Source: Alphaproteobacteria bacterium
GTDB lineage: Bacteria; Pseudomonadota; Alphaproteobacteria; Micavibrionales; Micavibrionaceae
DNA: 32,057 bases
Assembly: GCA_027482195.1 (NCBI GenBank)
Contig: JAIXWE010000090.1
Coordinates: 1-32,057 of the forward strand
Reading direction: 5' to 3'
Position numbers and translations under genes: made by a program. Below are positions 5,693-31,938 of the stretch, piece by piece. Every line of letters starts with the position of its first letter. The stretch's first letter is position 1. Below the pieces are notes generated by a model that had not been told where the DNA came from, searched no databases, and was given only the letters and a program-made list of their open reading frames with translations.

Positions 5693-6076
5693 TTATTTCT
5701 TACCAACAGGCTTTTTGCCAGCAATCGGCTTCGCAGGACCTTTGCGTGTCCGCGCGTTCGATTGCGTGCGTTGTCCACGCACAGGCAAGCCTTTGCGATG
5801 ACGCAAGCCGCGATAGCATTGCATGTCGATCAAGCGCTTGATGTTGAGTGAGACCTCACGGCGCAAATCACCTTCGATGGGGAAGCGACCTGTTTCAATG
5901 AGTTTACGAATTTTGTTTAATTCGTCTTCAGTCAGATCTTTCATACGACGCGCAAAATCAATTCCCACTTCTGTACAAATGGTTTCCGCCGTGTGACGGC
6001 CAATACCATGAATGTAAGTCAGAGAAATGATGGCGCGCTTGTTGTCAGGAATATTGACACCAGAGATACGGGCCAT
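5693..6076 (-). CDS. rpsM: 30S ribosomal protein S13
   Basis: [53 protein letters not shown]. Start chosen at MARISG. Confidence 0.98.
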
Positions 6077-6129
6077 TTTCGATGCTCCTTTAAGCATTTA
6101 TGCAGGAAAACCTGCGGTTGATTTCAAGC

Positions 6130-6368: not shown

Positions 6369-6387
6369 TGTTATGTATATCATAACA
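6369..6387. promoter_or_regulatory. Inverted repeat (operator-like) immediately upstream of the CHAP-like ORF start
   Basis: tgttatg-tatat-cataaca, 7-bp perfect arms, ending 2 nt before ATG at 6390. Confidence 0.5.
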
Positions 6388-6389
6388 AC

Positions 6390-7256
6390 ATGACAGACAA
6401 ATCACCGAAACGCCCCACTTCTGACTTCCCGCGCGCCGCGCAAGGAAACGTGTTGGTTGATTTTCTGAAGTTGCTTTCTTCGCAAATCCCAAGCACGCAA
6501 TCAACCCCGCAAAGCAAAGAAACGGTTGACAATGCTTTTACCCAATTTGGGGATTTCTTAACCAGTATGTTGCCCGACATGCCGGATATGCCGAGCATGG
6601 AGTCTGTTTCGAAAAACGTGCAACAGTTTTTGCGCGAAACGGGGATTACCAGTGCTATCGATAAAATTACGCCGGATAATTTTCCGACAAGCTTAAACGA
6701 TGCGAAACGCATGCTCACCGATATGCTCCCTGATTTTATGGGGTTTGGCCCAGAACGTTCACAAAAAGTGATTCAATATTCGATGAACGATGCGGCAAGT
6801 AAGGGTTATTGCGCAATGGGTGTAAGGCTAATTGGTGAAAAGTTAGGGTGGAATGTGCCGCAAGGTATCGGAAGCGCAACTGACTGGCCAACACAACTGA
6901 CAACGGAACGCGGATGGGTCAAGCTTGATGGTGTGCGCCCTGAAGACGCCCCACCCGGCTCCGTCCTTTACTTTAGTAATTACGAGGACGCCGGTAAAAA
7001 AGTGCCAGCAGGCGCAAAACCAGGATCTGGCGCATATCACGGCCATGTTGAGATTGTTTGCGAAGACCAAAATGGCGGCCGTACTTACGTTTCTGATGCC
7101 GCACGGCGTAACTATGGCGGATCTGTGCCCGGTAATTTTGGTGGCGTTTATTATTACGTCGGACCTGAAGCCGCAAAAGAATTTAATGGAACATTCTCAC
7201 CACAAAAAATGGCAACGCTGCGCCCTGATTTAGCGGCAAGTTTGGCACCGTCATAA
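6390..7256 (+). CDS. Putative CHAP/NlpC-P60-like cysteine peptidase/amidase with long N-terminal extension
   Basis: 288 aa from MTDKSPKRPT...; GYCAMGVRLIGEKLGW (Cys141), APPGSVLYF, AYHGHVEIVCED (His219), TYVSDAARRNYGG form a Cys/His CHAP-like pattern. No obvious signal peptide. Only plus-strand gene inside the ribosomal cluster. Confidence 0.7.
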   Translation: MTDKSPKRPTSDFPRAAQGNVLVDFLKLLSSQIPSTQSTPQSKETVDNAFTQFGDFLTSMLPDMPDMPSMESVSKNVQQFLRETGITSAIDKITPDNFPTSLNDAKRMLTDMLPDFMGFGPERSQKVIQYSMNDAASKGYCAMGVRLIGEKLGWNVPQGIGSATDWPTQLTTERGWVKLDGVRPEDAPPGSVLYFSNYEDAGKKVPAGAKPGSGAYHGHVEIVCEDQNGGRTYVSDAARRNYGGSVPGNFGGVYYYVGPEAAKEFNGTFSPQKMATLRPDLAASLAPS

Positions 7257-7264
7257 ATTTTTAT

Positions 7265-7834
7265 TTAATCCAAAATTTCCCGAATAGATTCGGTGACGGC
7301 TTCAACGCTTGCCATACCATCAATCTTTTTCAAAAGATTTTTAGATTCATAGTAAGGCAAAATCGGAGCTGTTTGCGCGCGATAAACATCCAAACGTTTC
7401 TTAAGCGCGTCTTCATTATCATCGCCGCGCACCGCATTTGGGTTCTCAGCCGCACGTTTTTGTACGCGCACCAATAATGCAGCTTCATCGACAACCAATT
7501 GAATCACGGCATCTAAATTTTTATTTTTTTGTGCCAACATATTATCTAAAGCTTGCGCCTGGGGCACCGTGCGCGGGAATCCATCCAAAATAAAACCCCT
7601 CGCACAATCCGGGTGATCAATACGGGTTGCGATCATGCGGATAACGATATCATCCGACACTAAACCGCCCGCATCCATAATTTGCCTCACCTCAACGCCT
7701 AACGGTGTCTCAGCAGCGATCTCAGCCCGCAACATATCCCCGGTTGAAAGTTGCTTTAAGCCCCTTTCTTCTTCAAGAATTTTTGCCTGGGTTCCCTTGC
7801 CGGCACCCGGAGGGCCCAGAAGAATAATGTTCAT
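7265..7834 (-). CDS. adk: Adenylate kinase (short form lacking extended LID)
   Basis: MNIILLGPPGAGKGTQAKILEE; GFILDGFPRTVPQAQAL; 189 aa; ATGA-type overlap with secY stop. Confidence 0.98.
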   Translation of the reverse strand: MNIILLGPPGAGKGTQAKILEEERGLKQLSTGDMLRAEIAAETPLGVEVRQIMDAGGLVSDDIVIRMIATRIDHPDCARGFILDGFPRTVPQAQALDNMLAQKNKNLDAVIQLVVDEAALLVRVQKRAAENPNAVRGDDNEDALKKRLDVYRAQTAPILPYYESKNLLKKIDGMASVEAVTESIREILD

Positions 7835-18559: not shown

Positions 18560-18880
18560 TTACGCAGCCTGACCGATCTTGATTTCAACATCGACACCGG
18601 CGGCCAAGTCTAACTTCATCAACGCATCCACAGTTTGCGGTGTTGGGTCAACAATATCCAACACGCGCTTGTGGGTGCGCATTTCAAACTGTTCCATCGA
18701 TTTTTTATCGATGTGCGGGGAACGCAACACGGTAAAGCGCTCTTTGCGGGTTGGCAATGGCACAGGCCCGCGCACGCGCGCACCGGTACGTTTTGCCGTT
18801 GATACGATCTCAGCCGTGGATTGATCCAACACGCGGTGATCAAAGGCCCGAAGGCGGATACGAATGGTTTGTGTGTCCAT
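18560..18880 (-). CDS. rpsJ: 30S ribosomal protein S10
   Basis: [67 protein letters not shown]. Confidence 0.99.
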
Positions 18881-18892
18881 AATTTCTTCCTC

Positions 18893-21001
18893 TTAAGCCG
18901 CTAATTTCTTTTTGACTTCTTCAACAATGTTCGGTGGAACCGGCTCATAATGATCGAACAACATCGTATATTGTGCGCGACCTTGTGACATCGAGCGCAA
19001 ATTGTTGATGTAACCGAACATGTTTGACAAAGGCACCATCGCCGTAATTACTTTTGCGTTTCCGCGATCATCCATGGAGTTGATTTGACCACGACGGGAA
19101 TTCAAATCACCGATGATATCGCCCATGTAATCTTCAGGTGTAACAACTTCCACCTTCATCACAGGCTCAAGTAATTGAGGACCCGCTTTTTGCATCCCTT
19201 CTTTGAAGGCAGCACGTGCCGCAATTTCGAACGCGAGTGCAGACGAGTCAACATCGTGGTAAGCCCCATCCGTCAAGCGCACTTTGAAATCAACGACCGG
19301 GAAGCCCGCGATGATACCAGTTTCTTGTGCATTTCTGAGACCCTTTTCAACGCCGGGAATATACTCTTTTGGAACAGCTCCACCCACGATTTCCGATTTA
19401 AATTCATAACCCAAACCAGGCTCTTGGGGTTCAAACACCAAGTTAATGCGCGCATACTGACCCGATCCACCCGATTGTTTTTTGTGGGTATAATCAACTT
19501 CAGCCAAGCGTGTAATGGTTTCGCGATATGCCACTTGCGGTGCACCGATATTCGCCTCAACCTTAAATTCACGCTTCATACGATCAACAATAATTTCAAG
19601 GTGCAATTCACCCATTCCCTTGATGATCGTTTGACCAGATTCGTGATCAACCGACACGCGGAAAGATGGATCTTCAGACGCAAGACGTTGCAACGCTTGT
19701 GACATTTTTTCTTGGTCAGCTTTTGTTTTCGGCTCAACCGCGATCTCAATAACAGGCTCAGGAAACTCCATACGCTCCAAAACGATTGGCTTTGCCGAGT
19801 CGCACAATGTATCGCCGGTGGTGGTATCTTTCAAACCAACCAAAGCCACGATATCACCCGCATAGGCTTCTTTGATTTCTTCACGGTTATTGGAGTGCAT
19901 GAGCAACATACGGCCAATACGCTCTTTTTTATCTTTGACGGTGTTCACAACGTAAGATCCCGCATCCAACTTACCGGAGTAAATCCGTGCGAATGTCAAA
20001 GATCCCACGAAAGGATCGTTCATGATTTTGAAAGCAAGCGCGGAGAAAGGCGCATCATCCGCAGCCGGACGTGTATCTTCTTCATCGCTGTCAACTTTTT
20101 TGCCTTTAACATTGCCGACATCCAACGGGCCCGGCAAGAAATCAACAACCGCATCCAACAACGTCTGAACGCCTTTGTTCTTAAACGCGGAACCGGTCAG
20201 CATCGGGACGAAAGATGAATTCAATGTTCCCTTACGGATACATTTTTTCAAGGTTGCGATATCAACCTCTTTACCTTCCAAATAAGCTTCCATGGCGTCG
20301 TCATCTTGCTCAACAGCCATTTCAACCATTTTCATGCGGTATTCTTTTGCTTTCTCAAGCAAATCAGCCGGAATATCGGTTTCTTTGAAAGTTGCACCGA
20401 GATTGTCTGAATCCCAAATGATCGCCTTCATCTTGAGCAAATCAACCACGCCAACGAAATCAGATTCCGCACCGATAGGAAGATTTAACACAAGCGGGTT
20501 TGCACCAAGGCGTGTTTTAATATCAGAGACGCAACGATAAAAATCGGCGCCGATTTTGTCCATTTTGTTCGCGAAAACAATACGCGGAACTTTATATTTA
20601 TCACCTTGACGCCATACGGTTTCCGTTTGCGGCTCAACCCCTTGGTTTCCGTCAAGCAAACACACCGCACCATCAAGAACGCGCAACGAGCGCTCAACTT
20701 CAATTGTAAAGTCAACGTGGCCAGGTGTATCAATGCTGTTCAGGCGCATTTTTTGACCTGGATTTGTGCCATGCTCAGGCCCCGTCCAAAAACAGGTGGT
20801 CGCCGCAGAGGTAATGGTAATTCCGCGCTCTTGCTCTTGCTCCATCCAATCCATGGTCGCCGCACCGTCATGCACCTCACCAATTTTGTGAGACTTACCG
20901 GTGTAATATAAAATGCGTTCCGTACATGTGGTTTTTCCGGCGTCAATATGCGCCATGATTCCAAAGTTACGGTAGTTTGCTAAAGGATATTCGCGTGCCA
21001 T
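18893..21001 (-). CDS. fusA: Elongation factor G
   Basis: [58 protein letters not shown]. Confidence 0.99.
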
Positions 21002-22317: not shown

Positions 22318-22512
22318 TTATTTTTTATCAAGCGTAAGAAGAGCCAGTGTTACATTGGCATAAGCATTAGCAATCGCAACTTTATGGGGCGACTCTACAT
22401 AATTTTCTTTGCCCTTCCATTGTTGTTGCAAGAAGTTGCGCATTTCTTCCAAAGTTTGTCTGCTTTGCGCATCCACACCTTCGGTGCGCCATTGATCAAT
22501 TTTTGAGGCCAT
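22318..22512 (-). CDS. Uncharacterised 64-aa protein
   Basis: MASKIDQWRTEGVDAQSRQTLEEMRNFLQQQWKGKENYVESPHKVAIANAYANVTLALLTLDKK; AGGGAG upstream; flanked by its own candidate promoter and terminator. Confidence 0.75.
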   Translation of the reverse strand: MASKIDQWRTEGVDAQSRQTLEEMRNFLQQQWKGKENYVESPHKVAIANAYANVTLALLTLDKK

Positions 22513-22556
22513 AATGTCAAACTCCCTGACTTGAGATATGCTTTTCTTCGATTGGC

Positions 22557-22585
22557 AAATTAAGAGCATGTTAAAAATATGTCAA
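22557..22585 (-). promoter_or_regulatory. Candidate promoter of the 64-aa gene
   Basis: Minus strand TTGACA (22580-22585) - 17 nt - TAATTT (22557-22562), abutting the rpoC terminator U-tract. Confidence 0.55.
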
Positions 22586-31422: not shown

Positions 31423-31938
31423 ATGAAAATCAAAGACCGCCGCGAATTTAAAAATAAATCCCCCGTTCTGACCTTCACCGCGCAAGATAAAGTCATAGAT
31501 GCCGTCAAGGTGATGTCAGAGAAAAACTACGGCGCAAGTGTTATTGTTGATCAAGACAACAAACCGGTCGGCATTGTAACAGAACGCGACTTTATGCGCC
31601 GCTTATTAGCAAAAGGGCTTGATCCCAATACAACGCCGATCTCAGACATTATGACCAAAGACCTCAAGCTTGCCCATGTGGAAGACGACGTGGTTGACTG
31701 GCTTCGTATTATGTCCAATGAACGGTTTCGTCACCTGCCCATCATTGATAACCAAGGCCGGCTGTTGAACCTGATGTCACAGGGGGATTTTGTTTCTTAC
31801 ACCTGGCCGCAATTGTTGAACCAGGTCAAAGAGGCCGCGGTGAAAAGTTTTATGGAGCGGTTTCACGTGCATATGATTTTGGGCGGGATGATGATTTACA
31901 CCATCATCACCCTGATCATTTTGCGCAGCATGTCCTAA
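31423..31938 (+). CDS. Two-CBS-domain protein with C-terminal transmembrane segment
   Basis: KVIDAVKVMSEKNYGASVIVDQDNKPVGIVTERDFMRRLL and DIMTKDLKLAHVEDDVVDWLRIMSNERFRHLPIIDNQGRLLNLMSQGDFV; hydrophobic MILGGMMIYTIITLIIL; AAGGGAG SD. Confidence 0.9.
   Translation: MKIKDRREFKNKSPVLTFTAQDKVIDAVKVMSEKNYGASVIVDQDNKPVGIVTERDFMRRLLAKGLDPNTTPISDIMTKDLKLAHVEDDVVDWLRIMSNERFRHLPIIDNQGRLLNLMSQGDFVSYTWPQLLNQVKEAAVKSFMERFHVHMILGGMMIYTIITLIILRSMS

What the first reader, a model, noticed from the sequence alone, without database searches (positions are those of the whole stretch)
6369..7256. Opposite-strand CHAP/NlpC-like hydrolase gene embedded in the spc/alpha ribosomal cluster
Between adk and rpsM, a plus-strand 288-aa gene interrupts ~31 kb of otherwise same-strand genes and ends 8 bp from the adk stop (convergent, no obvious terminator). 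The C-terminal half has a CHAP-like Cys141/His219 pattern (GYCAMGVRL...PGSVLYF...HGHVEIV...YVSDAA). The N-terminal ~110 aa are Met/Pro/Ser-rich and the protein has no recognisable signal peptide, so it may be delivered by a non-Sec route (secreted effector, or an endolysin-like enzyme) or act in the cytoplasm. A 7-bp dyad (6369-6387) sits exactly where an SD should be, suggesting a repressor site or leaderless translation.
Basis: partly seen in the sequence, partly recalled or inferred. Interest (0 to 1): 0.65.

Follow-up and report, generated by a model that had tools for sequence, protein, structure and literature searches.

The report
Predator-family cell-wall hydrolase, ribosomal cluster
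A bacterium from the family of Micavibrio, a known predator of other bacteria, carries a gene for a CHAP-type cell-wall-cutting enzyme with no ordinary export signal, placed in a variable gap of its ribosomal-protein gene cluster; the enzyme type is known, but how it leaves the cell is not.

Summary
In detail: a real plus-strand gene (6390-7256, 288 aa) lies between rpsM and adk, 8 bp from the adk stop, against minus-strand neighbours. Its C-terminal half is a CHAP (papain-like Cys/His) domain. Pfam CHAP alone is sub-threshold (21.9 bits; cut-off 26), but most relatives pass it (up to 39 bits), and a domain model (pLDDT 84) finds CHAP endolysins and Tse1 first in the PDB. The family contains a record labelled Micavibrio sp. 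The domain occurs in 12 of 104 genomes there (plus one weak, probably contaminant hit), in no class genome sampled outside it, and in two phage tail-region proteins. Relatives fuse it to lysozyme or peptidoglycan-binding-like modules, so peptidoglycan is the likely target. Most, including this one and its paralogue, lack a clear signal peptide. No T6SS sheath or VirB4 was found, so a T6SS effector is unlikely. The adk-rpsM gap is a variable cargo site; the 7-bp dyad is not beyond chance. Best reading: a lineage-restricted CHAP peptidoglycan hydrolase exported by a non-Sec route or released by lysis, possibly used on prey. New member of a known kind. The more novel lead is a modular set of signal-less muralytic enzymes in two other genera.

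The parts
6390..7256 (+). CHAP-domain protein gene, 288 aa, no signal peptide
   Evidence: start supported by paralogue N-terminus
6390..6752 (+). N-terminal 121 aa, Met/Pro/Ser-rich, low-confidence helices, no detectable relative
6753..7166 (+). CHAP (papain-like) domain shared with relatives
6810..6812 (+). Cys141 codon, predicted nucleophile
   Evidence: invariant in alignments; start of helix in the model
7044..7046 (+). His219 codon, predicted catalytic base
   Evidence: invariant; on a strand in the model
7095..7097 (+). Asp236 codon, candidate third catalytic residue
   Evidence: invariant in bacterial members, not in the phage relatives
6369..6387 (.). Perfect 7-bp dyad with 5-bp loop upstream of the start; not beyond chance
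7265..7834 (-). adk, convergent neighbour
5693..6097 (-). rpsM, divergent neighbour

Best explanation
The gene encodes a cysteine peptidoglycan hydrolase of the CHAP (papain-like) superfamily. A Cys141/His219 pair, probably with Asp236, would cut an amide bond in the peptide part of peptidoglycan, after the protein leaves the cytoplasm by a non-Sec route or by lysis. In this Micavibrio-related lineage it is most likely part of the wall-degrading enzyme set used on other bacteria. It sits in the ribosomal cluster only because the adk-rpsM gap is a tolerated insertion site. Shown: gene, domain relationship by sequence and predicted fold, conserved Cys/His, lack of signal peptide, fusions of relatives to wall-acting domains, variable locus. 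Inferred: substrate, export and use on prey. That this organism is a predator rests only on kinship with a record labelled Micavibrio.
For: Pfam CHAP E=2.5e-4 on the protein and above cut-off on most relatives, up to 39.3 bits. Domain model pLDDT 84.4, pTM 0.83; of its 14 best PDB hits, 12 are CHAP endolysins, Tse1 amidase or Gsp amidase, including ranks 1-7 (best E 0.009, TM about 0.5). Profile hits on Tse1 chains at E about 0.01. Relatives: signal peptide + GH24 lysozyme + CHAP (P0007), GH24 + CHAP without signal (L062), weak PG_binding_1 + CHAP (L069). A relative in G108 lies next to a muramidase-like gene (muramidase-like is my reading, Pfam gave no hit). Phage homologues lie in long tail-region proteins. 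Restricted to this family among genomes searched: 12 solid carriers of 104, none outside it in a class sample of 385. A record in the family is labelled Micavibrio sp.. Micavibrio aeruginosavorus is an epibiotic predator with many hydrolases and type I/II secretion (PMC3189940).
Against: Pfam score of this member is below cut-off; Foldseek E-values are all above 0.001; the member is a long branch. No export signal was identified. Carriage by a minority of the family argues against an essential predation role. The predatory habit of this genome was not tested.
Confidence: 0.6

Rival explanations
1. A domesticated phage lysis or tail enzyme that acts on the producer's own wall when released (endolysin-like autolysin).
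For: No signal peptide; homologous domains in phage tail-region proteins; weak PHROG endolysin hits for relatives; fold hits are mostly endolysins.
Against: No holin or phage genes seen next to it or to the paralogue; no match in 50,697 phage records; two relatives have signal peptides, which suits a secreted enzyme.
Confidence: 0.2
2. A cytoplasmic CHAP amidase acting on a small molecule, like E. coli Gsp amidase.
For: No signal peptide; Gsp amidase among the fold hits.
Against: Relatives carry GH24 and peptidoglycan-binding-like modules and two have signal peptides; Gsp amidase ranks below the endolysins and Tse1.
Confidence: 0.12
3. A type VI secretion amidase effector of the Tae kind.
For: Profile and fold similarity to Tse1; no signal peptide.
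Against: No VipB sheath gene in the 99.8% complete assembly; no immunity gene adjacent; similarity to Tse1 is weak and shared by the whole papain-like fold.
Confidence: 0.03
4. A decaying gene without function.
For: Long branch in the tree, sub-threshold Pfam score, no Shine-Dalgarno.
Against: Open frame, all conserved catalytic residues kept, GC content like its neighbours.
Confidence: 0.05

Closest known systems
CHAP family (Pfam PF05257), e.g. CHAPK of LysK, LysGH15, Lys2972
   Same: Cys/His papain-like domain, predicted fold, order of catalytic residues
   Different: About 15% identity to solved members; this member is below Pfam's cut-off; it is chromosomal in an alphaproteobacterium
Tse1/Tae1 T6SS peptidoglycan amidase
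   Same: Papain-like fold, weak profile match across Cys and His, no signal peptide
   Different: No T6SS sheath in this genome, no adjacent immunity gene
E. coli glutathionylspermidine amidase (CHAP)
   Same: CHAP fold, no signal peptide
   Different: No synthetase partner domain; relatives are fused to wall-acting domains
Tail-region proteins of two IMG/VR phage contigs (L072, L100)
   Same: Homologous CHAP domain (profile E 5e-13 and 5e-15)
   Different: Embedded in 763-812 aa proteins; candidate Asp not conserved

Membership tests
CHAP (PF05257) | Score above the curated cut-off | tested here: not met
   21.9 bits against 26; most relatives pass
CHAP (PF05257) | Conserved Cys and His in the right order | tested here: met
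   C141, H219 invariant
CHAP (PF05257) | Papain-like fold with Cys at a helix start and His on a strand | tested here: met
   Model pLDDT 84; ranks 1-7 of the PDB hits are CHAP endolysins or Tse1; E-values weak
CHAP (PF05257) | Amidase or endopeptidase activity on peptidoglycan | not testable with these tools
   needs an assay
Tae1 T6SS effector | T6SS apparatus in the genome | tested here: not met
   no VipB (PF05943) in G000; E. coli control positive
Tae1 T6SS effector | Adjacent immunity gene | tested here: not met
   neighbours are rpsM and adk
Phage endolysin | Phage lysis or structural genes nearby | tested here: not met
Sec-secreted wall hydrolase | N-terminal signal peptide | tested here: not met
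   hydropathy; no dedicated predictor available
Type I secretion substrate | Partner ABC exporter and C-terminal signal | tested here: inconclusive
   HlyB-like ABC proteins present but all below cut-off; signal not testable

The most novel reading that the evidence does not exclude
Some Micavibrio-related bacteria deploy signal-peptide-less wall-cutting enzymes through a route not yet described. In two other genera of the family this takes the form of a cassette: a coiled-coil protein, a muralytic protein with a common N-module and interchangeable catalytic domain (SLT, muramidase-like, GH24+CHAP), and a protein with a signal-like N-terminus. The window gene would be a diverged, stand-alone user of the same route.
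Probability: 0.2. Interest if true: 0.65.

Novelty: new member of a known kind. Interest (0 to 1): 0.35.

Why it matters
How epibiotic predators such as Micavibrio breach prey walls is, as far as I know, largely open. A lineage-restricted CHAP clade, mostly without clear signal peptides and in part fused to other wall-acting domains, gives concrete candidates. The cassette seen in relatives would make the export question testable.

Tried and rejected
T6SS effector: rejected on absent VipB. VirB4-type T4SS: absent in the own genome. Flagellar export gate FlhA is present, but in 97 of 103 family genomes, so it does not discriminate. Type I exporter: uninformative, the model rings in all control genomes. 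Dyad as a regulon site: one exact copy in the genome, and such dyads are common. Shared N-module in the window protein: not detected. Anti-phage defence: no PADLOC hit. Foreign composition: none. First genome-contig scan with the whole protein found nothing. The full-length structure model was poor (pLDDT 66) and its searches weak. The G027 hit is weak and on a contig whose ORFs look unlike the family, probably contamination. The tree does not resolve the position of the window member.

Full report
Observation. The plus-strand gene is real: 6390-7256, 288 aa, between rpsM (minus, 5693-6097) and adk (minus, 7265-7834), 8 bp from the adk stop. By my reading of the ORF list it is the only opposite-strand gene within the minus-strand run 109-31118; the next plus-strand gene is a CBS-domain gene at 31423. 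A 344-codon open run exceeds all 300 shuffles (maximum 204). The start at 6390 is supported by a paralogue in the same genome that begins almost identically. The dyad is present but such dyads occur about twice per kb here.

Identity. Pfam finds CHAP at E=2.5e-4, 21.9 bits, under the cut-off of 26. Relatives from the same family with a CHAP hit score 25.6-39.3 bits, all but one above the cut-off; one relative (P0008, with EF-hand-like insertions) has no CHAP hit. Cys141, His219, Glu221, Ser235, Asp236 and Asn249 are invariant in seven full-length members. A domain model has pLDDT 84.4 and pTM 0.83, with Cys at the start of a helix and His on a strand. Its PDB hits at ranks 1-7 are CHAP endolysins (Lys2972, LysIME-EF1, LysK, LysGH15) and Tse1; ranks 9-12 and 14 are LysGH15 and Gsp amidase. 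Rank 8, a conjugative translocation signal domain (4l0j), and rank 13, YopQ (8brf), are low-probability hits (0.06 and 0.11) that I take as unrelated. E-values are modest, best 0.009. Profile search of solved sequences gives Tse1 chains at E about 0.01. From memory, LysK CHAP has a Glu 17 residues after its His; Asp236 lies 17 after His219. The phage relatives lack this Asp, so the third residue is uncertain.

Distribution. The genome's family contains a record labelled Micavibrio sp.. The domain is in 13 of 104 family genomes, one of them (G027) weak and probably contamination, and in no genome outside the family in a class sample of 385. Two IMG/VR phage contigs carry it inside 763 and 812 aa proteins that I read as tail proteins from their neighbours; Pfam gave no hit for the 812 aa protein.

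Architecture and substrate. Relatives combine the domain with GH24 lysozyme, with or without a signal peptide, and with a weak PG_binding_1 match. In G108 it lies directly downstream of a gene I read as muramidase-like, for which Pfam gave no family. This points to peptidoglycan. Signal peptides by hydropathy are clear only in G007 and G009; G108 and G100 are borderline; the window protein and its paralogue have none.

Locus. adk and rpsM are 124-285 bp apart in about half of the 30 loci examined, while others carry unrelated genes or larger gaps there. In two other genera, relatives of the gene lie between nuo genes (gene names by my reading). The position is therefore a tolerated insertion site, not a functional link to ribosomes (inference).

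Export. No VipB and no VirB4 in this genome. FlhA is present, as in nearly all relatives. HlyB-like ABC proteins are present but uninformative. Micavibrio aeruginosavorus is reported to have type I and II systems and no evidence of type III or IV (PMC3189940). The route remains open: type I, flagellar gate or lysis.

Wider lead. In 12 genomes of two genera a common N-module of about 110 aa precedes different muralytic domains in proteins without a clear signal peptide. SLT is confirmed by Pfam in four and GH24+CHAP in one; the rest are muramidase-like by my reading only. Phmmer links many of the upstream coiled-coil genes and many of the downstream genes to each other. Many C-terminal tails share FNNGG...QPxPL-type motifs, by eye. 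This genome has no N-module hit, so the link to the window gene is only through the CHAP domain in G108 and G109.

Verdict. A known enzyme kind in an unusual place and lineage, with an unsolved export route.

Noticed in passing
L066:1915-8297; L074, L079, L089, L091-L097, L062: Three-gene cassette: coiled-coil protein, muralytic protein with shared N-module and swapped catalytic domain, and a protein with signal-like N-terminus; N-module in 12 of 103 family genomes, two genera.
   Followed up: partly
L009:4033-4821: Paralogue of the window gene in the same genome, between a 575-aa gene without Pfam match and an mnmG-like gene; has a Shine-Dalgarno.
   Followed up: partly
L014:8140-9159: CHAP relative with EF-hand-like calcium motifs inserted between the Cys and His parts of the domain.
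   Followed up: no
L100:4548-6986 and L072:4437-6728: Homologous CHAP domain inside long tail-region proteins of two related phage contigs.
   Followed up: partly
L010:7980-8798, L065:5729-6547, L069:6036-7121: Relatives of the gene sit inside the nuo (complex I) gene cluster in two other genera.
   Followed up: no
L067:5984-8647: A CHAP relative lies upstream of a flagellin-like gene in G100.
   Followed up: no
window 22318-22569: 83-aa ORF without Pfam match between rpsL and rpoC.
   Followed up: no
window 18560-21001: fusA is followed directly by rpsJ; no tuf gene in the usual place.
   Followed up: no
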